NCBI GenBank assembly: GCA_943737045.1
Contig: CALSFV010000281.1
Location: forward strand, 75,001-139,000
DNA length: 64,000 nucleotides
Reading direction: 5' to 3'
Source of the DNA: Parapristionchus giblindavisi
Taxonomy: Eukaryota; Nematoda; Chromadorea; Rhabditida; Diplogasteridae
Positions within the stretch are counted from its first letter, which is position 1; each line of letters opens with the position of its first letter. This document shows, piece after piece, positions 7,729 to 61,087 of the stretch. Both the position numbers and the translations under genes were made by a program. Under the pieces are notes generated by a model. It worked only from the letters and a program-made list of their open reading frames with translations, was not told the origin of the DNA and did not search any database.

Positions 7729-8975
7729 GAAAAACGAAAGCTGAAATATGTGTAAAAGTTTTAGATGAAGAGTAATAACAAAGATCAAAAGTACAAAGTT
7801 CATACATTCAAACCAAGAACAGACGTAGAGAGGTAGATCACTAGTCATCTCACGCTCAACCAATCAATCTCTAGTACTCTCTCACTTCTCCACACTCTCT
7901 CACATATGCGACGCGCACTCTCTCTACTTACAAACGGCAATCAAATGATCATTTCCTCATTATGTATCCTTGCTTTTATGTATACAATATTAGTATTAGC
8001 GTAGCGAAATCTCAATCAATTTTCAATCGTTCACTCTTTAACCTTATTAAGTTCTTCTTCTTTCCTTTGAAAAAACGTTTTATTGAAAACTGTCCTGTGT
8101 GGGTCATCCTACTGATGAGGCCCATCCCACACGGGCCGGTCCAGTGTCTAGGACCAGGGCCGAAACACTGGATCGTTTTTTATCTCTAGATAGTCAGTCT
8201 TTACATAGTTTATCTTCTAACACAACCTACTTTAAAACCATTCTTTCATTACTTTAACTCTAATATGTATTAATAGCACTCTATCTACACGGCGGCTCAA
8301 TGATACTAACTAAGGAGCTCCCGCAATCTCAAACTGAGTATCGCAAACTAAGGGACTCTCCCGGAGCGAAAGTAATATACGATATGAATGAGCGCTGTTC
8401 GCCATAGGAACGCTTCAGACTAAAACTATCATCGAGTTTGACGAGTTGTGATAAACATATATTCTTACTCTACAGAGAAAGGGCTTTCAAATAAGCTATA
8501 AATGATTACATTTCGCCACCTTAAGTCAAAAGAGACTCCTTGTTAGCGTAAAATAAAAATTTGACGGTTATTTCTAAAAAAACGTCAAATTTGAGCAGTG
8601 TTCTCCACTAATGTGGCAAGGTTTCCTAAGTACAGTATACTATAATAAGAGGGTCAAATAATTCCAGAATGTTCATTATAAAGTTTAATTCTTCATTATT
8701 GACGACGGCGGATAAAATGATCTCCAAAATATCCAATTTCAAGTTTTCTCCGAAGAAATGGTGTATCGATTACTAAAAGGCGTCTGCTGTATGGACCAAA
8801 CTGTAGATGTTTGACAAGGCCGTTCTGCTTAATAGATAATTTTTATACCAAAAGATCTATATATTTCGAATCAGCATTTAAAGCTCTTTTACATGAGATC
8901 ATCTTATTTTCCGTTTCCGCATCACATCTACAGTCTGCTCCATTTAGCATACGCCTTTTACTAAATGATACACCA
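7729..8975 (+). mobile_element. Insertion carrying a PLE-like 3' end with hammerhead-like RNA
   Basis: Interrupts the dnj-10 3' spacer, which stops at 7728 and resumes near 8976. No protein is recognisable. It resembles the region downstream of the Penelope-like ORF at 49232: a pyrimidine-rich leader, GTAGATCAC, then the two-hairpin hammerhead-like RNA, then TTATCTCTAG. The right end has inverted repeats (8747-8797 against 8934-8984, TTTCTCCGAAGA). I infer a 5'-truncated relative of the 46.6 kb retroelement, possibly compound. Confidence 0.5.
8094..8175 (+). ncRNA. Split-strand hammerhead-like ribozyme, copy 1
   Basis: Hairpin A pairs 8094-8103 with 8126-8135 (10 bp); its loop holds stem I 5' (8107-8111), CTGATGA (8112-8118) and stem II 5' GGCCC (8119-8123). 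Hairpin B pairs 8137-8147 with 8165-8175; its loop holds C17 (8148), stem I 3' (8149-8153), stem II 3' GGGCC (8157-8161) and GAA (8162-8164), with A8165-U8147 as the 15.1-16.1 pair. All conserved hammerhead core residues are present, but strand order is not that of type I, II or III. Predicted cleavage is after C8148. Catalysis is inferred. Confidence 0.6.
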
Positions 8976-9308: not shown

Positions 9309-11475
9309 TCACTGTTGAGTGTATCATGCACTCATTACTATGGCTAGATGATCAGATGGGGCCACTCGTGATGGGAGGGCAGTGTGTCGATAGACCTGTA
9401 ATGTTCATGTTTCAATCAATTCATATACTCCCAAGGCGGCAATCGGAGGCAATATAATTATGGCCTTGTGACAATAGTACACTTATAATCGAGCAATGAT
9501 AGTGTGCATTTTTGTATTCAATCATCCAATCAATAATACCACCATACCTCTTTTCTACTAGGTTGTTCAATCACTTTCACTCTTTCCACTCCATTAGCCC
9601 AGATATAATCGATACATCCATCGAAGCCGCAATTCTGAGAATATTATCAATTGATCTTTGATGGACGATCAATAATTCATTTTGCGATAATTAGTAAAAA
9701 CAAAATGATATTACAATTCCTTCGCAATGCTCGCTATTCTAATAGCCATGAAACATGAAATTGCCATGTTGTCAAAGCACAAATTCCCCAACACCACACA
9801 CCTTTCCATCCTTATCCGTATAGGCTGTACAATTGGTGAATGGAGGAGTGTCAGAGATGTTCTTCAGTTGGAGATCATACGGTAACTGAAAATCGAAAAT
9901 GCCCTTTCATTGATCTTTGATATCCTTTATATCATATCCGAGTGTCCTTCTCGCGTGATTGTTCGAGGTGGAGTCTTAGCTTCCGCAGTTGGAGACTGTA
10001 GGCATATACCGTAACGGTCGCACCCTCGAGGAGGAGTTCCCAATACTCGACTCCCCGTGCCGAATACCAGATGTACACCATCACTTTTTGGCGGTGAAAA
10101 TCGGGTTTGGGGGCATCTGCTGGCTATTCGTGATCACCGAACCAGTCTCTTCGTAATCATAGAACATCCACTTTTCATCACAGGTTATAACGTCTACCAG
10201 CCAAGCATTCCGACGACGTAGAGTTAGAAAAGTCGTTGTCATGTCCTGTCGGCGATCCTTGTCGTAGTCGGCTAGGACGTGGGGTAGACATCTTCCCTAT
10301 TTTCACTTATTTCCGAGAGTGTGAAGGCCATGTACCACAGTGCTCTGGTTGACCCCAAGTGCCATTGCAGCATCACCGGTATCGGGATACGGATCAGCCT
10401 CTTCCTCTTTGAGCAATCGATCGAGGTCCACCTCCGATAGTCGACTGGGTTGGTCTTCATCTTCGATTGAAAAGTCCTGTTTCGCGAATTTGACGACCCA
10501 CTTTCTCACCGCTGTTACGTGAGGTACATGTGAGGGGTACACCTCTGCTAGGCCATGTTGAAAGTCAGGGCGTTTCAAGCCCAAGAGGAAGAGGAATAAA
10601 ATAACGTTGAGAATTTGAATTCCGTCGGAGGCGAAATAGGTTTTCTCGCCTGGAGGACACGCGGGAACTGAATCGAAAACAACCGCAGGATGTTCGAGGG
10701 ACAGCCTATCTAGTGTAAACAGCATGGATGCATGCAATAACAACAGAGCAAAAACGAGGCGACTGAAGTTGGGACAAAAAAACGAGCGTTACTTATGAAT
10801 TCACCTAATAAAAGAGTTTTCTCATATTCTTCTTTTTGAAAACTGAACATATGGTCATGGGATCAATGGCTAAATGATTGACGACAAGTCCATGCATATC
10901 TCCAAAATGCTTCTACAGTATCTCTCGGCATACTGTACTCCTCTGAAGGATCTACAGTATGCCCAAATCTACCGTACCTCAAATCGTGCACCTCCCATTT
11001 TCTCATCCATCTTCCAGCATGCGTCATCCTCCTCCACCAATCCTCTCGACAGTAACTGGTACACCGATCCGCAGGTTGTACTGTTGAGGTCCGCGCCCAA
11101 GAGGACGCGTACGCGACGCGTTCCGCTCGCGGAAGCGGTCGAGACGCGTGCGGCGATTTCGCGAACCACCAGAAGCACTTTTGTTAGTTCACAGTTATCA
11201 TTTTAAATCTTATTATTATTATTAATAATATTAATTGTCAGCTCAACTGCAAAAACGCCGTACAGCTTTGAAAATTTCCCATTTTCTTAAACCAGGCAGT
11301 ATCTGGTTTCATCCCCTATATATCTCTCATAATCAGTCGTTCAATATAGTGTGCTTATATTAATATTATCGTGACAAATATTCCAATTAACATGTTCATG
11401 TCGTGGATTGTGATGAAGATGAGTGGTGACAGAGATGATGACGTCATTTGTGATAGAATCAGCCAATTCGATCAT
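9309..11475 (-). pseudogene. pde-12: pde-12-like fragment, copy 3 (left arm of palindrome 1)
   Basis: Exons read right to left: P0 (about 11388-11475, donor GT lost), P1 (10978-about 11178, first codons replaced, retains LLGADLNSTTCGSV), P2 (9802-9885, intact), P3 (9548-9634, intact) and Plast (9309-9395, with TGA for Arg near the end). A truncated mariner occupies the P1-P2 intron. Its mirror copy at 18055-20259 shares the same lesions, so these predate the inverted duplication. Confidence 0.8.
9930..10808 (-). mobile_element. mariner, 3'-deleted (left arm)
   Basis: Right end has the 30-bp-plus TIR (TTAGGTGAATTCATAAGTAA). The minus strand encodes the transposase N-terminal helix-turn-helix region: DPYPDTGDAAMALGVNQSTV preceded by LSEVDLDRLLKEEEA. 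The left ~390 bp including the other TIR is deleted at a junction with ATAT microhomology near 9930. Compared with the 1258 bp copy at 53172-54429 it lacks one end and cannot move by itself. Confidence 0.85.
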
Positions 11476-46640: not shown

Positions 46641-49232
46641 TTTGATCTTTACAGGTCGTGTGGACGACTGAGTGGGTTCGCCACTCGCGGTGTGACATCC
46701 CAGACACTAAAGCTGCGCTTCTCGAAACATAGACAATCATTCAGCACTAAAACCGAACTGGGAGCTCGTTGCAAAACATACTTGAGCAAACACTTCAAGG
46801 AGCATGGTCACGATAGTGAAAGTTTTAGAATAGATATTCTTGATCATGCAAAAACAGATAATCAATTACGTGAGAAAGAGTTATTGTGGATTAAAGCTCT
46901 GAACACAGCATATCCACTTGGTTTGAACGATTCGATAAAACATTTTGGAAATATCAGTGATGAGATTAATCCACTTGAAAAACGAACACACCCTTACTAC
47001 ACTCTTCCATACACTGGTGGAAACTATCGTAAAAGAGGAAACAGACAAAAGCGTAGAAGAAAAACAGCATCAAGATGCACTGAATCAGTTGAGGATTTAA
47101 TCTCCAAAATAAGTCTGTTAGACACTCGTGAACTATTTATATACGGTAGATCCCTGTCACAACATAATCTCAGAAAACTCGAATTTTTCGCGGCAACAAG
47201 TGATTTTCAATCATTGCCTCATGTAGACAGATACAAAATATTCTCTATTGTCTGCAATCACCATTGGAGGCATTACAAAGAAGAAAAACGAGTCATTCGA
47301 AATGAAGAAAGATTCTTAATCGAGTTTTATGGCAATTTAATGGAAAGGTTACCACTCGTTAAATATCTAAATTCAACATACGCAAAGGACCTATACCGGA
47401 GTATACTTGGTGTGGATAAAGAGTGTCCTCGAATTGCACTTACTTACTCTCTTTCAAGCCCTACTTCAACTATTTTATGCAACTATGGGTCCTTCTTGAA
47501 ACACCTTGACAGATCGATAATTGACAATATACTCTCGACATCCTCTTGCATTTGTAGTAATTTTAAAGAGTCTGTGGATCAGTCGCTAGGACACATTTGT
47601 ACAGGAAGTACCTCATTCATAAAAGACGAAAAGCTCAAAAAGATTATGGACAGAGGAACGAAATTCCGATTGCAGTCGTTTGTCAGAAGGGATGAATTTT
47701 TAGACGCATTAAAACTATCTTGTTCACAATTAATCGATAGAATAGCCAGTCGTAATAAGCAAAATCAAAATACAGAAAATGTGAAAAATACTCTCTTTAA
47801 GTTCATTGAAAGAAAAATTAATTTCAACACAAAATATGCAAATAAAAATGCAGCTACGATTGAACGAAATTCTCCAGCAATAAAGTTCCTACACAAACAC
47901 TTTGTTGTCACAATGGTCGACAAAGCATCCGGAAATTATGCAATAACTTGCAAAAAACTATACTTGGAGTTTATGGAAAGAGAAATGAACACTAATGACG
48001 ACGGAGAAAGAACATACGAGCCTGTGGAAAATTTCGACCCTATCCAGAAGATCAAAGAGCATGAAAAATTCACAAAAAGTTTCAACATCCAATCATTAGA
48101 AAACTATTCTCTGCCACGAATTTACGGTATTCCAAAAATGCATAAAAATCCGGTTAAATTTAGATTCATAACAGGAGCTCATAATAGCAGCTTAAAACCG
48201 ATATCGATACATTTACAAAAAATTTTGATTTTCTTACAAAATCACTTCCGCAATTATTGCAGTAATACAACGAGCCTTTCGAAAACAAATCATTATTTCT
48301 CAGTTCAGAATACTTTCAAAGTTATTCACAACATTCAAACAATCAAAGATAAAAATACGAATGTGTTTTGCGCAGACTTTTCATCTCTTTTTACAAACCT
48401 GCCACACAAAGTTGTCAAAGAAAAACTATTCTATTTAATCGATCTTCTTTTTAAAAATGCAGAATCTGACTACATTGTTGTCAAAGGAAACCGTATTCAT
48501 TACGACCAAAATAATAGTTCAAGGAGCGGTCTGTCCTTCCATAGTAATGATGTGAAACTAATCATCGACTACATTTTGAATAACAGTTATGCATTCTATG
48601 GAGGTACATACTACAAACAGAAAAAAGGAATTCCTCAGGGAAACAATGCCTCACCACAAATAGCAGATCTTACGTTAGCCGTAATGGAATTTCAATATAT
48701 TAAAGAGAAGGTTAAGCATAATCACCCACTTGCCTATCACCTAAATAGAACATTCCGTTACATTGATGATCTATTACATGTTTCAACCAAAACTGAAGAA
48801 TTTGTAAAAATAACCAAAGAAATGTATCATCATTCATTAACATTAGAACAAACAAATCATTCGATGACTTCCACCTCTTTTCTAGATCTCAATATCGAGT
48901 TAAGGCAGGGTACACCAAAGATTTCGCTCTACAACAAAACTGATGATTATACTTTTAATGTGATAAGATATCCGAATTTCGAATCCAATGTTCCTTTGAA
49001 GATAGGATTGAATACCTTCTATGGAGAAGTAGTTAGAATCTTTCGAAACTGTTCACACAAAGATGATTTCTTGGAAAGAGTAGTCTCGCTCACACAGTAT
49101 TTTACTAATATAGGATATCCAAAACATGTCATTTGTTCGACAATTTTTAAGACACTAAGAAAGAATCCCTCAATGTCTATCAAGTACAGCATTCCCAATG
49201 CTGACATTTGCACAATTGTTCTTAGAAATTAA
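46641..49232 (+). CDS. Penelope-like GIY-YIG endonuclease / reverse transcriptase
   Basis: A frame open from 46578; the first ~21 codons come from the MITE and host exon D8, so the element's own part starts near 46641. In order: second half of a GIY-YIG endonuclease (TSQTLKLRFSKHRQSF, then ELLWIKALNTAYPLGLND, residues ~44-115; the GIY strand itself is missing), a linker with CIC near residue 325 (the CxC motif of N-terminal-endonuclease Penelope elements), then an RT with LPRIYGIPKMHKNPVKFR (~510), CADFSSLFTNLP (~597), GIPQGNNASPQIADL (~684) and the catalytic FRYIDDLLH (~727). No stop or frameshift over 2.6 kb suggests a young copy. The domain order fits the Naiad group; clade placement needs a tree. 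Confidence 0.8.
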   Translation, partial: FDLYRSCGRLSGFATRGVTSQTLKLRFSKHRQSFSTKTELGARCKTYLSKHFKEHGHDSESFRIDILDHAKTDNQLREKELLWIKALNTAYPLGLNDSIKHFGNISDEINPLEKRTHPYYTLPYTGGNYRKRGNRQKRRRKTASRCTESVEDLISKISLLDTRELFIYGRSLSQHNLRKLEFFAATSDFQSLPHVDRYKIFSIVCNHHWRHYKEEKRVIRNEERFLIEFYGNLMERLPLVKYLNSTYAKDLYRSILGVDKECPRIALTYSLSSPTSTILCNYGSFLKHLDRSIIDNILSTSSCICSNFKESVDQSLGHICTGSTSFIKDEKLKKIMDRGTKFRLQSFVRRDEFLDALKLSCSQLIDRIASRNKQNQNTENVKNTLFKFIERKINFNTKYANKNAATIERNSPAIKFLHKHFVVTMVDKASGNYAITCKKLYLEFMEREMNTNDDGERTYEPVENFDPIQKIKEHEKFTKSFNIQSLENYSLPRIYGIPKMHKNPVKFRFITGAHNSSLKPISIHLQKILIFLQNHFRNYCSNTTSLSKTNHYFSVQNTFKVIHNIQTIKDKNTNVFCADFSSLFTNLPHKVVKEKLFYLIDLLFKNAESDYIVVKGNRIHYDQNNSSRSGLSFHSNDVKLIIDYILNNSYAFYGGTYYKQKKGIPQGNNASPQIADLTLAVMEFQYIKEKVKHNHPLAYHLNRTFRYIDDLLHVSTKTEEFVKITKEMYHHSLTLEQTNHSMTSTSFLDLNIELRQGTPKISLYNKTDDYTFNVIRYPNFESNVPLKIGLNTFYGEVVRIFRNCSHKDDFLERVVSLTQYFTNIGYPKHVICSTIFKTLRKNPSMSIKYSIPNADICTIVLRN

Positions 49233-49570
49233 TGAAACATCTTATCTGCTCTCTTCTGTGGTCTGACTTATTGATTAGGGGTGACTAAAACATAAGATCA
49301 ATACTACACTCAGACAGCAGGCGAGACAGAGGATGGGTAGATCACAAATCGATTTTGCGGTTCCCATGTACACTCCTCTCACATCATAACCCATCCCTTC
49401 CCTTCTCCTCTTTTATCACTCAACCATTCTCTAATGTCTCATTATCCTTATTTATTAGTTACCACTTAGTTTTCTGTTCCTCTCTTAGATCTCTCTCATA
49501 GGATCTTTGCGTGTCGTTCTAGGATACTTGCGCGTTATTTCCTTTTTTAAACATTACTCAAATAATTGTT

Positions 49571-49650
49571 CTCCTGGGGCTTGTCTACTGACGAGGCCCA
49601 CCCCCAGGGGAGTGGTCGGTGTCTAGACCAAGGGCCGAAACACCGATCAC
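49571..49650 (+). ncRNA. Split-strand hammerhead-like ribozyme, copy 2
   Basis: Hairpin A (49571-49579 with 49602-about 49611) loops out GTCTA (49583-49587), CTGACGA (49588-49594) and GGCCC (49595-49599). Hairpin B (49612-49622 with 49640-49650) loops out C17 (49623), TAGAC (49624-49628), GGGCC (49632-49636) and GAA (49637-49639). Loop-loop pairing gives stem I (5 bp) and stem II (5 bp). Compared with copy 1, N7 differs (T to C), and two stem I pairs and several stem III pairs change compensatorily. It lies in the 3' region of the Penelope-like element. Activity is inferred. Confidence 0.65.
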
Positions 49651-49842
49651 GTTTCTCTAGGCTTTTATAAAACTATTAGACTATCTTAATAATAATTAAG
49701 CAAATTTGAATTATTGAATATTTTATCTCTGTCGTACTGTAGATTGTGCCTGTAAACACGAAAGTGTCGCATATATCGATCTTTACTATCTACCATATTC
49801 CATGATTTCCTTAAAAAAACCAACGACATTCCTTGTTTACAG

Positions 49843-52526: not shown

Positions 52527-54808
52527 TCACTCTTGAGTGTATCGTGCACTCATTACTATGGCTAGATGATCAGATGGGGCCATTCGTGATGGGAGGGCAG
52601 TGTGTCGAGAGACCTGTAATGTTCATGTTTCAAGGAATTTATATACTGCCAAGGCTTCAATCGGAGGCAATATAATTGTGGACTTGTGTCAATAGTACAC
52701 TTATAATCGAGCAATGATTGTGTGCATTTTTGTATTCAATCATCCAATCAATAATACCACCATACCTCTTTTCTACTAGGTTGTTCAACCACTTTCACTC
52801 ATTCAACTCCATTAGCCCAGATATAATCGATACATCCATCGAAGCCGCAATTCTGAGAATAATATCAATTGATCTTTGATCTTTGATGGACGATCAATAA
52901 TTCATTTTGCGATGATTAGTAAACACAAAATGATATTACAATTCCTTCGCAATGCTCGCTATTCTAATAGCCACGAAACATTAAATTGCTTTTTCCCCCA
53001 ACACCACATACCTTTCCATCCTTATCCGTATAGGCTGTACAATTGATGTATGGAGGAGTACCAGAGATGTTCTTCAGTTGGAGATCATACGGTAACTGAA
53101 AATCGAAAATGCCCTTTCATTGATCTTTGATATCCTTTGAAAGGCAAGAAATCAAAATAAAATTGCGTCTATTAGGTGAATTCATAAGTAACGCTCGTTT
53201 TTCGCTTTCCAAAAAAAAAATTGTCACAAAATGTAACAAAACAAGGAGAATTTTAGAAATATTTTCCATTCGTATCGGTCACCTTCTGCCTTCTACCCGG
53301 CAGTTTGTGAACCCTTCGTGATAAATGGGGTAAATTCCGGAAATAAGTGCCGAGTACGGTATGGGTACGGTATGGTATGGTATGGCTCGGTCTTTGAAGC
53401 TTTGCCCTTTGAGGAAGTGATGGAGCGCCCCGAAAAGGTGACAACCATAGTCGGCAAGGTCTAGTAAGTACGGAGGGTGGGGGAGTACAGTTCAGTCATA
53501 TTCCGTTAGCCCAGCCTGAGTCGTTTTTCTGGTATGATGTCGAGCGTTTTCATGTTGAAATTATATCCGAGTGTCCTTCTCGCGTGATTGTTCGAGGTGG
53601 AGTCTTAGCTTCCGCAGTTGGAGACTGTAGGCATATACCGTAACGGTCGCACCCTCGAGGAGGAGTTCCCAATACTCGACTCCCCGTGCCGAATACCAGA
53701 TGTACACCATCACTTTTTGGCGGTGAAAATCGGGTTTGGGGGCATCTGCTGGCTATTCGTGATCACCGAACCAGTCTCTTCGTAATCATAGAACATCCAC
53801 TTTTCATCACAGGTTATAACGTCAAGCATTCCGACGACGTAGAGTTAGAAAAATCGTTGTCATGTCCTGTCGGCGATCCTTGTCGTAGTCGGCTAGGACG
53901 TGGGGTAGACATCTTCCCTATTTTCACTTATTTCCGAGAGTGTGAAGGCCATGTACCACAGTGCTCTGGTTGACCCCAAGTGCCATTGCAGCATCACCGG
54001 TATCGGGATACGGATCAGCCTCTTCCTCTTTGAGCAATCGATCGAGGTCCACCTCCGATAGTCGACTGGGTTGGTCTTCATCTTCGAGGGAAAAGTCCTG
54101 TTTCTCGAATTTGACGACCCACTTTCTCACCGCTGTTACGTGAGGCACATGTGAAGGGTACACCTCTGCTAGGCCATGTTGAAAGTCAGGGCGTTTCAAG
54201 CCCAAGAGGAAGAGGAATAAAATAACGTTGAGAATTTGAATTCCGTCGGAGGCGAAATAGGTTTTCTCGCCTGGAGGACACGCGGGAGCTGAATCGAAAA
54301 CAACCGCAGGATGTTCGAGGGACAGCCTATCTAGTGTAAACAGCATGGATGCATGCAATAACAACAGAGCAAAAACGAGGCGACTGAAGTTGGGACAAAA
54401 AAACGAGCGTTACTTATGAATTCACCTAATAAAAGAGTTTTCTCATATTTTTCTTTTTGAAAACTGAACATATGGTCATGGGATCAATGGCTAAATGATT
54501 GACGACAAGTCCATGCATATCTCCAAAATGCTTCTACAGTATCTCTCGGCATACTGTACTCCTCTGAAGGATCTACAGTATGCCCAAATCTACCGTACCT
54601 CAAATCGTGCACCTCCCATTTTCTCATCCATCTTCCAGCATGCGTCATCCTCCTCCACCAATCCTCTCGACAGTAACTGGTACACCGATCCGCAGGGTGT
54701 ACTGTTGAGGTCCGCGCCCAAGAGGACGCGTACGCGACGCGTTCCGCTCGCGGAAGCGGTCGAGACGCGTGCGGCGATTTCGCGAACCACAAGCAGCATT
54801 TGCAGAAC
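52527..54808 (-). pseudogene. pde-12: pde-12-like fragment, copy 11 (P1 to Plast)
   Basis: P1 54599-54808 is a full 210 nt exon (LQMLLVVREIAARV, LLGADLNSTPCGSV). A complete mariner fills the P1-P2 intron. P2 53012-53095 is open, P3 52766-52852 has a TGA inside (GVE-stop), Plast 52527-52613 is open and ends TQE-stop. It is a direct copy of the 9.2-11.2 kb region, so the mariner insertion predates that duplication. Confidence 0.85.
53172..54429 (-). mobile_element. Full-length mariner, coding broken
   Basis: 1258 bp with TA on both sides (53170-53171, 54430-54431) and TIRs starting TTAGGTGAATTCATAAGTAA. The transposase lies on the minus strand: helix-turn-helix DPYPDTGDAAMALGVNQSTV, then the ITCDEKW region near 53800, but a continuous frame does not exist. 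It is the reference for the deleted copies at 9930-10808 and 18722-19606. Confidence 0.9.
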
Positions 54809-55717: not shown

Positions 55718-55785
55718 CAAACTTTCCCATGGTTGAGGACTGTAACAAGTGCAAGGGTACTCAAGTTGAGCCTGGATTTACGATG
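55718..55785 (+). pseudogene. dnj-10: dnj-10 zinc-finger exon D1
   Basis: Follows CATACAG. Encodes FPMVEDCNKCKGTQVEPGFT then M, the first CxxCxGxx zinc motif of the DnaJ Cys-rich domain, ending in phase 0, compatible with D2. The following intron is only ~20 bp before the polypurine array begins, so D2 to D9 have been replaced. Confidence 0.75.
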
Positions 55786-55805
55786 GTTTTATTGATTTTT
55801 CATTT

Positions 55806-58800
55806 ATTGAAGAAGAAGAGAAGATGAAGAAAGAAGAAGAAGAAGAGAAGATGAAGAAAGAAGAAGAAGAAGAGAAGATGAAGAAAGAAGAAGAAGAAGA
55901 GAAGAAGAAGAAAGAAGAAGAAGAAGAGAAGATAAAGAAAGAAGAAGAAGAAGAGAAGATGAAGAAAGAAGAAGAAGAAGAGAAGATAAAGAAAGAAGAA
56001 GAAGAAGAGAAGATGAAGAAAGAAGAAGAAGAAGAGAAGATAAAGAAAGAAGAAGAAGAAGAGAAGATAAAGAAAGAAGAAGAAGAAGAGAAGATAAAGA
56101 AAGAAGAAGAAGAAGAGAAGAAGAAGAAAGAAGAAGAAGAAGAGAAGATAAAGAAAGAAGAAGAAGAAGAGAAGATAAAGAAAGAAGAAGAAGAAGAGAA
56201 GATAAAGAAAGAAGAAGAAGAAGAGAAGATAAAGAAAGAAGAAGAAGAAGAGAAGAAGAAGAAAGAAGAAGAAGAAGAGAAGATAAAGAAAGAAGAAGAA
56301 GAAGAGAAGATGAAGAAAGAAGAAGAAGAAGAGAAGATAAAGAAAGAAGAAGAAGAAGAGAAGATAAAGAAAGAAGAAGAAGAAGAGAAGATGAAGAAAG
56401 AAGAAGAAGAAGAGAAGATAAAGAAAGAAGAAGAAGAAGAGAAGATGAAGAAAGAAGAAATAGAAGAGAAGATGAAGAAAGAAGAAGAAGAAGAGAAGAT
56501 AAAGAAAGAAGAAGAAGAAGAGAAGATGAAGAAAGAAGAAGAAGAAGAGAAGATAAAGAAAGAAGAAGAAGAAGAGAAGAAGAAGAAAGAAGAAGAAGAA
56601 GAGAAGATAAAGAAAGAAGAAGAAGAAGAGAAGATGAAGAAAGAAGAAGAAGAAGAAGAAAGAAGAAGAAGAAGAGAAGATGAAGAAAGAAGAAGAAGAA
56701 GAGAAGATAAAGAAAGAAGAAGAAGAAGAGAAGATGAAGAAAGAAGAAGAAGAAGAGAAGATGAAGAAAGAAGAAGAAGAAGAGAAGATAAAGAAAGAAG
56801 AAGAAGAGAAGATGAAGAAAGAAGAAGAAGAAGAGAAGATGAAGAAAGAAGAAGAAGAAGAGAAGATAAAGAAAGAAGAAGAAGAAGAGAAGAAGAAGAA
56901 AGAAGAAGAAGAAGAGAAGATAAAGAAAGAAGAAGAAGAAGAAGAGAAGATGAAGAAAGAAGAAGAAGAAGAAGAAAGAAGAAGAAGAAGAGAAGATGAA
57001 GAAAGAAGAAGAAGAAGAGAAGATAAAGAAAGAAGAAGAAGAAGAGAAGATGAAGAAAGAAGAAGAAGAAGAGAAGATAAAGAAAGAAGAAGAAGAAGAG
57101 AAGATGAAGAAAGAAGAAGAAGAAGAGAAGATGAAGAAAGAAGAAGAAGAAGAGAAGATAAAGAAAGAAGAAGAAGAAGAGAAGATGAAGAAAGAAGAAG
57201 AAGAAGAGAAGAAGAAGAAAGAAGAAGAAGAAGAGAAGATAAAGAAAGAAGAAGAAGAAGAGAAGATGAAGAAAGAAGAAGAAGAAGAGAAGATAAAGAA
57301 AGAAAGAAGAAGAAGAAGAGAAGATGAAGAAAGAAGAAGAAGAAGAAGAGAAGATGAAGAAAGAAGAAGAAGAAGAGAAGATGAAGAAAGAAGAAGAAGA
57401 AGAGAAGATGAAGAAAGAAGAAGAAGAAGAGAAGTTGAAGAAAGAAGAAGAAGAAGAGAAGATGAAGAAAGAAGAAGAAGAAGAAGAGAAGATGAAGAAA
57501 GAAGAAGAAGAAGAAGAGAAGATGAAGAAAGAAGAAGAAGAAGAAGAAGAGAAGATGAAGAGAAGAAGAAGAAGAAGAAGAAGAAGAAGAAGAAGAAGAA
57601 GAAGAAGAAGAGAAGATGAAGAAAGAAGAAGAAGAAGAGAAGATGAAGAAAGAAGAAGAAGAAGAAGAAGAGAAGATGAAGAAAGAAGAAGAAGAAGAAG
57701 AAGAAGAAGAAGAAGAAGAAGAAGAAGAAGAAGAAGAAGAAGAAGAAGAAGAAGAAGAAGAAGAAGAAGAAGAAGAAGAAGAAGAAGAAGAAGAAGAAGA
57801 AGAAGAAGAAGAAGAAGAAGAAGAAGAAGAAGAAGAAGAGAAGATGAAGAAAGAAGAAGAAGAAGAAGAAGAGAAGATGAAGAAAGAAGAAGAAGAAGAG
57901 AAGATGAAGAAAGAAGAAGAAGAAGAAGAAGAAGAAGAGAAGATGAAGAAAGAAGAAGAAGAAGAAGAAGAGAAGATGAAGAAAGAAGAAGAAGAAGAGA
58001 AGATGAAGAAAGAAGAAGAAGAAGAAGAAGAAGAAGAAGAAGAAGAAGAAGAAGAAGAAGAAGAAGAAGAAGAGAAGATGAAGAAAGAAGAAGAAGAAGA
58101 AGAGAAGATGAAGAAAGAAGAAGTAGAAGAGAAGATGAAGAAAGAAGAAGAAGAAGAGAAGATGAAGAAAGACGAAGAAGAAGAAGAAGAAGAAGAGAAG
58201 ATGAAGAAAGAAGAAGAATAAGAAGAGAAGATGAAGAAAGAAGAAGAAGAAGAGAAGATGAAGAAAGAAGAAGAAGAAGAGAAGATGAAGAAAGAAGAAG
58301 AAGAAGAGAAGTTGAAGAAAGAAGAAGAAGAAGAGAAGATGAAGAAAAGAAGAAGAAGAAGAGAAGATGAAGAAAGAAGAAGAAGAAGAAGAAGAAGAAG
58401 AAGAGAAGATGAAGAAAGAAGAAGAAGAAGAAGAAGAGAAGATGAAGAAGAGAAGATGAAGAAAGAAGAAAGAAGAGAAGATGAAGAAAGAAGAAGAAGA
58501 AGAAGATGAAGAAAGAAGAAGAAGAAGAAGAAGAAGAGAAGATGAAGAAAGAAGAAGAAGAAGAAGAAGAAGAAGAAGAAGAAGAAGAAGAGAAGATGAA
58601 GAAAGAAGAAGAAGAAGAGAAGATGAAGAAAGAAGAAGAAAGAAGAAGAAGAAGAAGAAGAAGAAGAAGAAGAAGAAGAAGAAGAAGAAGAGAAGATGAA
58701 GAAAGAAGAAGAAGAAGAGAAGATGAAGAAAGAAGAAGAAGAAGAAGAAGAAGAGAAAATGAAGAAAGAAGAAGAAGAAGAGAAGATGAAGAAAGAAGAA

Positions 58801-60911
58801 GTAGAAGAGAAGATGAAGAAAGAAGAAGAAGAAGAGAAGATGAAGAAAGAAGAAGAAGAAGAAGAAGAGAAGATGAAGAAAGAAGAAGAAGAAGAAGAAG
58901 AAGAAGAGAAGATGAAGAAAGAAGAAGAAGAAGAGAAGATGAAGAAAGAAGAAGAAGAAGAAGAAGAAGAAGAAGAAGAAGAAGAAGAAGAAGAAGAAGA
59001 AGAAGAAGAAGAAGAAGAAGAAGAAGAAGAAGAGAAGATGAAGAAAGAAGAAGAAGAAGAGAAGATGAAGAAAGAAGAAGTAGAAGAGAAGATGAAGAAA
59101 GAAGAAGAAGAAGAGAAGATGAAGAAAGAAGAAGAAGAAGAAGAAGAGAAGATGAAGAAAGAAGAAGAAGAAGAAGAGAAGAGAAGAAGAGAGATGAAGA
59201 AAGAAGAAGAAGAAGAAGAAGAAGAAAAGAAGAAGAAGAAGAGAAGATGAAGAAAGAAGAAGAAGAAGAGAAGATGAAGAAAGAAGAAGAAGAAGAGAAG
59301 ATGAAGAAAGAAGAAGAAGAAGAAGAAGAAGAAGAAGAAGAAGAAGAAGAAGAAGAAGAAGAGAAGATGAAGAAGAAAGAAGAAGAAGAAGAAGAAGAAG
59401 AAGAAGAAGAAGAAGAAGAGAAGATGAAGAAAGAAGAAGTAGAAGAGAAGATGAAGAAAGAAGAAGAAGAAGAGAAGATGAAGAAAGAAGAAGAAGAAGA
59501 AGAAGAGAAGATGAAGAAAGAAGAAGAAGAAGAAGAGAAGATGAAGAAAGAAGAAGAAGAAGAGAAGATGAAGAAAGAAGAAGAAGAAGAAGAGAAGAGA
59601 AGAAGAAAGAAGAAGAAGAAGAGAAGAAGAAGAAAGAAGAAGAAGAAGAGAAGATGAAGAAAGAAGAAGAAGAAGAAGAGAAGATGAAGAAAGAAGAAGA
59701 AGAAGAAGAGAAGATGAAGAAAGAAGAAGAAGAAGAAGAGAAGATGAAGAAAGAAGAAGAAGAAGAAGAGAAGATGAAGAAAGAAGAAGAAGAAGAGAAG
59801 ATAAAGAAAGAAGAAATAGAAGAGAAGATGAAGAAAGAAGAAGAAGAAGAGAAGATGAAGAAAGAAGAAGAAGAGAAGATGAAGAAAGAAGAAGAAGAAG
59901 AAGAAGAAGAAGATGAAGAAAGAAGAAGAAGAAGCGAAGATGAAGAAAGAAGAAGAAGAAGCGAAGATGAAGAAAGAAGAAGAAGAAGAAGAAGAAGAAG
60001 AAGAAGAGAAGATGAAGAAAGAAGAAGAAAGAAGAGAAGATGAAGAAAGAAGAAGAAGAAGAGAAGATGAAGAAAGAAGAAGAAGAAGAAGAAGAAGAAG
60101 AAGAAGAGAAGATGAAGAAAGAAGAAGAAGAAGAGAAGATGAAGAAAGAAGAAGTAGAAGAGAAGATGAAGAAAGAAGAAGAAGAAGAGAAGATGAAGAA
60201 AGAAGAAGAAGAAGAAGAAGAGAAGATGAAGAAAGAAGAAGAAGAAGAAGAAGAAGAAGAAGAAAGAAGAAGAAGAAGAGAAGATGAAGAAAGAAGAAGA
60301 AGAAGAGAAGTTGAAGAAAGAAGAAGAAGAAGAGAAGATGAAAAAAAGAAGAAGAAGAAGAAGAGAAGATGAAGAAAGAAGAAGAAGAAGAAGAGAAGAT
60401 GAAGAAAGAAGAAGAAGAAGAAGAAGAAGAGAAGATGAAGAAAGAAGAAGAAGAAGAGAAGATAAAGAAAGAAGAAATAGAAGAGAAGATGAAGAAAGAA
60501 GAAGAAGAAGAGAAGATGAAGAAAGAAGAAGAAGAAGAAGAAGAAGAAGAAGAAGAAGAAGAAGAAGAAGAAGAGAAGATGAAGAAAGAAGAAGAAGAAG
60601 AGAAGATGAAGAAAGAAGAAGAAGAAGAGAAGATGAAGAAAGAAGAAGAAGAAGAAGAAGAAGAGAAGATGAAGAAAGAAGAAGAAGAAGAGAAGATGAA
60701 GAAAGAAGAAGTAGAAGAGAAGATGAAGAAAGAAGAAGAAGAAGAGAAGATGAAGAAAGAAGAAGAAGAAGAAGAAGAAGAGAAGATGAAGAAAGAAGAA
60801 GAAGAAGAGAAGATGAAGAAAGAAGAAGTAGAAGAGAAGATGAAGAAAGAAGAAGAAGAAGAGAAGATGAAGAAAGAAGAAGAAGAAGAGAAGATAAAGA
60901 AAGAAGAAGTA
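55806..60911 (+). repeat. 5.1-kb polypurine array derived from dnj-10 exon D8
   Basis: Roughly 170 tandem units of GAAGAAGAGAAGATGAAGAA type, basic length 27 bp, extended in 3 bp steps (more GAA) and coding EEEEEKMKK. D8 contains the same KMKKEEEEKMKK segment. Variant units mark higher-order blocks: ATA for ATG (mostly 55.9-57.3 kb), GTA (58122, 58801, 59079, 59439, 60152, 60711, 60829) and GTT (57433, 58311, 60309). It is almost pure A/G on this strand. Very long frames on both strands are by-products. The right edge joins AGTCTTTATCAATCAATAAA of the gene spacer. Confidence 0.95.
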
Positions 60912-61087
60912 GTCTTTATCAATCAATAAATCTATAAATAATATACAAATTGCCTATAGAAATACTGGTACAAACGGAGTCAGATCACAGGAACGAACAT
61001 TAATTGATACAACTCAATCGATATACTTAGTGCTTAATCCGCTAAGACACAAGACTTAAGCGTAGGTCGATAAGTAAGTACTTAAGG

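What the first reader, a model, noticed from the sequence alone, without database searches (positions are those of the whole stretch)
49571..49650. Hammerhead core rebuilt from two kissing hairpins downstream of a Penelope-like element
Two adjacent hairpins have loops that pair with each other. Together they supply CTGACGA, GAA, the A-U 15.1-16.1 pair, C17 and the G-C 10.1-11.1 pair in the geometry of a hammerhead. The strand order is stem I 5'/core/stem II 5', then stem III 3'/C17/stem I 3', then stem II 3'/GAAA/stem III 5'. That differs from the circular order of types I, II and III. Stems I and II are joined at their outer ends, by hairpin A on one side and a three-base linker on the other. 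As I recall the literature, N-terminal-endonuclease Penelope elements are reported to lack canonical hammerheads, so a permuted version would have been missed by standard models.
Basis: partly seen in the sequence, partly recalled or inferred. Interest (0 to 1): 0.93.

Follow-up and report, generated by a model that had tools for sequence, protein, structure and literature searches.

The report
Rearranged self-cutting RNA in jumping genes
A self-cutting RNA (hammerhead ribozyme) whose three parts are joined in a scrambled order, a form reported so far from two environmental sequences, appears to be a conserved part of a group of retrotransposons with hundreds of copies in this nematode genome.

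Summary
At 49570-49650 two adjacent hairpins have loops that pair to give a complete hammerhead core in strand order C-S-G. A second, diverged copy lies at 8094-8175. A descriptor scan finds both; at the stem lengths they reach, 300 dinucleotide shuffles gave none.

It is conserved. Six Penelope-like element (PLE) families sampled in this nematode genome (44-62% protein identity) and one from another organism (35-36%) carry it downstream of the ORF. Changes are compensatory in stems I, II, III and in the helix bridging I and II. A letter pattern matches 542 places, its reversed control none. Tandem elements place one ribozyme on each side of an ORF. Intact ORFs have an N-terminal GIY-YIG domain.

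The topology is not new: Eckert et al. 2023 named it "type CSG" and showed two sequences cleaving in vitro, found only in metagenome DNA. New, as far as eight paper searches reach, are its home (N-terminal-endonuclease PLEs), the covariation over seven families, and a likely job: cutting tandem PLE transcripts into units. Rfam hammerhead models miss it. Cleavage itself is untested.

The parts
46689..49232 (+). Coding part of a 5'-truncated Penelope-like element, family F1 (reverse transcriptase and the end of the GIY-YIG domain); the open frame itself runs from 46569, its first part being flanking DNA
   Evidence: (RVT_1 E 2.1e-7)
49570..49579 (+). Hairpin A, 5' strand (helix bridging stems I and II)
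   Evidence: two-sided changes at 7 of 7 counted pairs over seven families
49583..49587 (+). Stem I, 5' strand GTCTA
49588..49594 (+). Hammerhead core CTGACGA (block C)
49595..49599 (+). Stem II, 5' strand GGCCC
49602..49611 (+). Hairpin A, 3' strand
49612..49622 (+). Stem III strand of block S, ending in U16.1
49623..49623 (+). C17; predicted cleavage between 49623 and 49624
   Evidence: position by analogy with the hammerhead; not tested
49624..49628 (+). Stem I, 3' strand TAGAC
49629..49631 (+). Three-base linker CAA from stem I to stem II
49632..49636 (+). Stem II, 3' strand GGGCC
49637..49639 (+). GAA (block G)
49640..49650 (+). A15.1 and the other stem III strand
49728..49731 (+). Usual 3' end of F1 copies, about 105 nt after the predicted cut
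   Evidence: most copies end at 49726-49733; exceptions named in the full report
8094..8175 (+). Second C-S-G hammerhead, family F2, in a PLE remnant (7744-8264) without its ORF; predicted cut after 8148
   Evidence: 97.9% identical to L044

Best explanation
It is a type-CSG hammerhead ribozyme (a non-circular permutation) carried near the 3' end of N-terminal-endonuclease Penelope-like retrotransposons. Hairpins A and B form; their loops kiss through stems I and II and close a normal hammerhead core that cuts after C17. In head-to-tail elements a read-through transcript holds one ribozyme on each side of the ORF, so cutting releases a unit of about 4.3 kb (F1) with ORF and both UTRs; its 5' end carries the second half of the ribozyme plus the element's last 105 or so nt, its 3' end the first half. 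Shown here: structure, covariation, conservation, PLE linkage, tandem layout. Inferred: cleavage, and its use in transcript processing and perhaps circularisation.
For: Complete core in C-S-G order at two window places, 0 of 300 shuffles at the same stem lengths. All 12 fetched regions downstream of ORFs of four further families carry it, as do F7 and a PLE at 35-36% protein identity from another organism (L054). Two-sided pair changes: stem I 3 of 5, II 2 of 5, III 6 of 8, A 7 of 7; 174 of 175 cells paired. Independent count for stems I and III: 97.6% paired against 77.3% in shuffles and 30-41% when slid. 542 pattern matches, reversed control 0. In the 7 of 21 family pairs whose downstream regions align at all, the motif is what aligns, plus one 43-base stretch. 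Two ribozymes 4283 bases apart around an ORF in L009. Two published type-CSG RNAs cleave in vitro.
Against: No cleavage data for these sequences. F3 has only four pairs in stem I; F4, F5 and F7 have an extra U between A9 and stem II. A competing hairpin (-5.9 kcal/mol in F1, -6.6 in F3, -7.4 in F6) excludes stem I, whose own duplex is worth -3.4, -0.7 and -3.1, and is the MFE fold there. Published type-CSG rates are low, 0.004 and 0.03 per min. In a canonical PLE, hammerhead mutants still inserted in vitro and no RNA ends were seen at the cut site in RNA-seq (PMC11167929). 7 of 40 F1 places no longer pass the scan.
Confidence: 0.88

Rival explanations
1. A conserved two-hairpin RNA that the element's protein recognises (packaging, or placing reverse transcription near the 3' end), with a hammerhead-like core that does little or no cutting.
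For: It lies about 105 nt before the usual 3' end of F1 copies. In a canonical PLE, hammerhead activity was not needed for insertion in vitro, and RNA binding and initiation lie near its hammerhead (PMC11167929, passages).
Against: A mere recognition structure would not need CUGANGA, GAAA and the A-U 15.1-16.1 pair, which seven families share while stem letters change. The two roles do not exclude each other.
Confidence: 0.08
2. A decayed ribozyme: once active, now carried along without function.
For: Some F1 copies have broken cores or stems (5 of the 7 failing places were read).
Against: Cores stay intact and stems are compensated across families whose surrounding UTRs no longer align; 33 of 40 F1 places pass the scan.
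Confidence: 0.03
3. Chance resemblance of two hairpins to a hammerhead.
For: Hairpins are common, and 9 looser hits appeared in 300 shuffled windows.
Against: 0 strict hits in 300 shuffles of the window and 0 in 1000 of L054; covariation across seven families.
Confidence: 0.005

Closest known systems
Type-CSG hammerhead ribozyme, CSG-1 and CSG-2 (Eckert et al. 2023, PMC10085705; abstract and sections 4, 13, 15, 16, 17, 18 part 1 read)
   Same: Block order C-S-G, conserved core, a helix bringing stems I and II together; similar size (published 77-78 nt with flanks; here 81 nt, L054 79 nt).
   Different: Published: two similar sequences, only in metagenome DNA, no host named in the sections read. 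Here: seven PLE families, hundreds of genomic copies, a known kind of element and covariation in four helices. Sequences of CSG-1 and CSG-2 could not be compared (supplement not open).
Type-SGC and type-GCS hammerheads (same paper)
   Same: Non-circular permutations with a pseudoknotted core; SGC also has a linker of typically three bases and a bridging helix.
   Different: Different block order; HRIMA-1 (SGC) came from metatranscriptomes, GCS is one bacterial candidate.
Minimal type I hammerheads of canonical PLEs and Terminons (PMC7761336, passages; Cervera 2014 and Lunse 2017 recalled, not held)
   Same: Hammerhead in the repeated UTR of tandem PLEs.
   Different: Canonical circular order, minimal helix III; here the order is permuted, stem III is long, and the endonuclease is N-terminal.
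N-terminal-endonuclease PLEs, Naiad and Chlamys (Craig et al. 2021; recalled, not held)
   Same: N-terminal GIY-YIG, CxC between endonuclease and RT, tandem units, insertions near short tandem repeats.
   Different: That clade is recalled as lacking canonical hammerhead motifs; here it carries a non-canonical one.

Membership tests
Type-CSG hammerhead ribozyme | Blocks in 5'-3' order C, S, G | tested here: met
Type-CSG hammerhead ribozyme | CUGANGA, GAA-A15.1/U16.1, H at 17 | tested here: met
   Seven of seven family representatives (for six, for F7); F4, F5 and F7 have one extra U after A9
Type-CSG hammerhead ribozyme | Stems I, II, III supported by covariation | tested here: met
   F3 has four pairs in stem I; the measure 'further pair types' was reached by 46 of 500 shuffles, the other four by 0
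Type-CSG hammerhead ribozyme | Helix joining the outer ends of stems I and II | tested here: met
   Hairpin A
Type-CSG hammerhead ribozyme | Self-cleavage after position 17 | not testable with these tools
   needs bench work
Hammerhead types I, II, III (Rfam) | Circular strand order; Rfam score above gathering | tested here: not met
N-terminal-endonuclease PLE (Naiad-like) | GIY-YIG N-terminal of the RT | tested here: met
   Pfam in F1 and F7; by motif in F2-F5 and F6. Pfam found nothing in F6 at E<=0.01, and no RVT_1 in F7 or F6; their RT was read from PQG and YxDD motifs
N-terminal-endonuclease PLE (Naiad-like) | CxC motif between endonuclease and RT (recalled) | tested here: met
   seven of seven families
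N-terminal-endonuclease PLE (Naiad-like) | Tandem units with pseudo-LTRs | tested here: met
N-terminal-endonuclease PLE (Naiad-like) | Insertion bias for microsatellites (recalled) | tested here: inconclusive
   TTTGATC-like repeats in 6 of 19 5' flanks; no control run; the 3' count (13 of 19) is inflated by the element's own end
N-terminal-endonuclease PLE (Naiad-like) | Insertion-in-fingers domain in the RT (recalled) | not tested
   no structure job was run

The most novel reading that the evidence does not exclude
The C-S-G hammerhead is the ancestral ribozyme of the N-terminal-endonuclease PLE clade as a whole, which is why that clade seems to lack hammerheads: a retroelement group with permuted protein domains has kept a permuted ribozyme since before F6 split from the nematode families, and the orphan type-CSG sequences from metagenomes are pieces of such elements.
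Probability: 0.5. Interest if true: 0.88.

Novelty: new variant of a known kind. Interest (0 to 1): 0.85.

Why it matters
Of the two permuted hammerheads that Eckert et al. judged likely valid, type CSG was the weaker: two sequences, modest covariation, metagenome DNA only. This gives it an organism, an element, covariation over seven families and a testable role. It also proposes that a PLE clade said (as recalled) to lack hammerheads carries one that standard models cannot see, so ribozyme censuses built on circular strand orders would undercount. Hundreds of copies in several families offer material for kinetics, mechanism and structure.

Tried and rejected
Chance: rejected by shuffles and homologues.

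A canonical hammerhead misread: rejected; with stems >=4 no canonical order in the window or L001-L053, no Rfam gathering hit in the window, only a 14.5-bit Hammerhead_3 match over hairpin B and no hammerhead match at E<=5 in L054 400-760. With stems loosened to 3, spurious 2-1-3 orders appear in L050, L052 and L053; taken as noise.

Topology new to science: rejected on reading PMC10085705. Its supplement was not open to me, so CSG-1 and CSG-2 could not be compared letter by letter.

Prior report of a link between type CSG and PLEs: none seen in paper searches (listings; most subscription papers and preprints are outside the library). Craig 2021, Cervera 2014 and Lunse 2017 are not held.

A conserved off-switch hairpin (stem I strand with GANGAG): six pairs in F1, F3, F6, five in F2, three in F4 and F5, about two by eye in F7; kept as a side observation.

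Relatives in viral contigs: none. Genome contigs: one, L054. Searches with the F7 and L054 proteins, two looser patterns and an 18S search did not complete (and repeats), so more divergent families, and PLE families without the motif, are unknown. Canonical Rfam families over the whole genome: 0 matches, but only 73 of 31781 and 67 of 34965 candidates were scored and no control genome rang, so this shows nothing. Covariance model R1 was built and not used.

Full report
WHAT IS THERE. The sequence at 49570-49650 reads as claimed. Two hairpins stand side by side: A (49570-49611) and B (49612-49650). Loop A holds GTCTA-CTGACGA-GGCCC. Loop B holds C17-TAGAC-CAA-GGGCC-GAA. GTCTA pairs with TAGAC (stem I), GGCCC with GGGCC (stem II), and the stem of hairpin B is stem III, ending in the A-U 15.1-16.1 pair. 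The 5'-3' order of the three hammerhead strands is C (CUGANGA), S (substrate), G (GAAA). MFE folding, which cannot draw the kissing stems, gives two adjacent hairpins in this copy and in five relatives, z -3.1 to -5.7.

CHANCE. Shuffled windows: 0 hits in 100 at stems I>=4, II>=4, III>=6; 9 hits in 300 at III>=4, and 0 with I>=5, II>=5, bridging helix>=8. A scan for all six strand orders with stems >=4 found no canonical order in the window or in L001-L053.

THE HOST AND THE ELEMENT. The genome (251 Mb, 703 contigs) holds 351 exact copies of the nematode SL1 spliced leader, part of them in a tandem array of about 1.17 kb, reversed control 0 (SL1 letters recalled), so the host is a nematode. 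The window's 101-base stretch matches 40 places there apart from one 32-base piece (a lower bound). 33 of the 40 pass the scan; 7 do not (in L020, L023, L027, L034, L037, L039, L040), and the five of those that were read carry changes in core or stems. The upstream ORF is a Penelope-like element. An intact relative in L009 is 981 aa with GIY-YIG at 120-207 (E 7.4e-7) before RVT_1 at 620-847. The window copy is cut off at about 46689, inside the endonuclease.

CONSERVATION. The protein search lists further families in the same genome at 54-57% identity (51 of 625 candidates scored). Regions downstream of 12 of these ORFs, from four families (F2-F5), were fetched and 12 of 12 carry the motif. 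A pattern search found 264 + 278 = 542 matches, reversed control 0 + 0, and showed one more family, F7, with the motif on both sides of a 938-aa ORF, 4531 bases apart. The pattern tests letters, not pairing. In the genome-contig collection one PLE relative was found, L054, in a bin labelled Flavobacteriaceae and most likely eukaryotic DNA; protein identity 35-36% to the six nematode families. It carries the motif at 531-609, about 300 nt after a stop codon, with stem I GTCAA/TTGAC, stem II GACCCC/GGGGTC, A at position 17 and a one-base bulge in stem III. Its contig ends in a 119-base direct repeat, as a tandem or circular assembly would. Shuffles of L054: 1 of 1000 gave a loose hit, 0 a strict one. 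In a tree of 16 proteins L054 and the nematode families fall in one supported group with P0001-P0003, whose DNA was not seen; L054's branch is long.

COVARIATION. Over seven families, one representative each: positions where a standard pair changes on both sides are stem I 3 of 5, stem II 2 of 5, stem III 6 of 8, bridging helix A 7 of 7; 1 of 175 cells is unpaired (F3, stem I, pair 5). Pairing one family's strand with another's lowers the mean number of pairs from 4.86 to 3.93, 5.00 to 4.24, 8.00 to 5.74 and 7.00 to 3.45. In this count stem III of F6 was re-registered by hand around its bulge, stem II of F4, F5 and F7 was counted one base on to allow for the extra U, and helix A's register was the best-pairing one. 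The separate tool, on a MAFFT alignment without such help, stems I and III only: 97.6% of cells paired against 77.3% in shuffles (0 of 500 reach it) and 30-41% when slid; covariation score 0.599 against 0.189 (0 of 500); the measure 'further pair types' was reached by 46 of 500. The tool warns that related sequences can beat shuffles. Between families, blastn of the downstream region finds a match in 7 of 21 family pairs; those matches are the motif, plus one 43-base stretch between F2 and F3; F6 aligns with none.

LAYOUT AND MECHANISM. Most F1 copies end at 49726-49733 (L017 at 49722 and L025 at 49736; L041, the second copy of L023 and L035 end earlier) and begin at many places, as expected of 5'-truncating target-primed reverse transcription. 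The predicted cut lies about 105 nt before that end. Tandem elements put ribozymes 4283 bases apart in L009, and 13 same-strand pairs 4.2-4.7 kb apart can be read in the part of the 542 places that one search lists. A read-through transcript would be cut at each ribozyme into ORF-bearing units. The halves left on the two ends of a unit are complementary through three stems, so closing into a circle is possible; this is inference. By analogy: two published type-CSG RNAs cut at 0.004 and 0.03 per min; a canonical PLE hammerhead cut only with its protein present, its mutants still inserted in vitro, and no RNA ends at its cut site were seen in RNA-seq (PMC11167929, passages).

A SIDE STRUCTURE. 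In F1, F3 and F6 a six-pair hairpin, and in F2 a five-pair one, joins the stem I strand and linker to GANGA(G) of the core, excluding stem I. It appears in the MFE fold of F1, F3 and F6, not of F2, F4 or F5. N7 is C facing G or U facing A in it. In F4 and F5 it is three pairs, in F7 about two by eye. It may be an off state, or simply a competitor that slows cleavage; not all families have it.

WHAT IS KNOWN. Eckert et al. 2023 (PMC10085705; abstract and sections 4, 13, 15, 16, 17, 18 part 1 read) define the six block orders, name this one CSG, and report two similar natural sequences, both cleaving, found 'exclusively in metagenomes (i.e. in DNA)', and no RNA of the study in a known organism's genome except the GCS candidate. 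Canonical PLEs carry minimal type I hammerheads of unknown role (PMC7761336, passages). That N-terminal-endonuclease PLEs lack canonical hammerheads is recalled from Craig et al. 2021, not held. No paper linking the two was seen. So the topology is known; the home, the breadth and the proposed role are new as far as these searches reach.

LIMITS. No cleavage data. One distant organism only. PLE families without the motif could not be looked for, because later genome searches did not complete. Rfam searches of the whole genome for canonical hammerheads gave nothing, scored few candidates and rang in no control.

Noticed in passing
L049, L054, window 49580-49595: Competing hairpin between the stem I strand and GANGAG of the core in F1, F2, F3 and F6, with N7 paired to a matching base; a possible off state.
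   Followed up: partly
L021, L029, L031, L033, L037, L038: F1 copies flanked by TTTGATC-like short tandem repeats, hinting at an insertion preference; no control run.
   Followed up: partly
L025 (C4) and L035 (C202): Inverted arrangements of F1 elements: L025 holds two head-to-head copies with intact ribozymes on opposite strands at the outer ends, about 5.7 kb apart; in L035 two copies meet tail to tail inside the ribozyme.
   Followed up: no
window 55770-60953: Long purine-rich minisatellite, open in several frames on both strands, giving EEEEKMKK-type and FFFLHLL-type translations.
   Followed up: no
window 10303-10788 (-) and 53924-54409 (-): Two nearly identical 161-codon open frames on the minus strand, by eye like a mariner-type transposase; not tested.
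   Followed up: no
G000 C145: Tandem array of SL1 spliced-leader copies with a period of about 1.17 kb.
   Followed up: no
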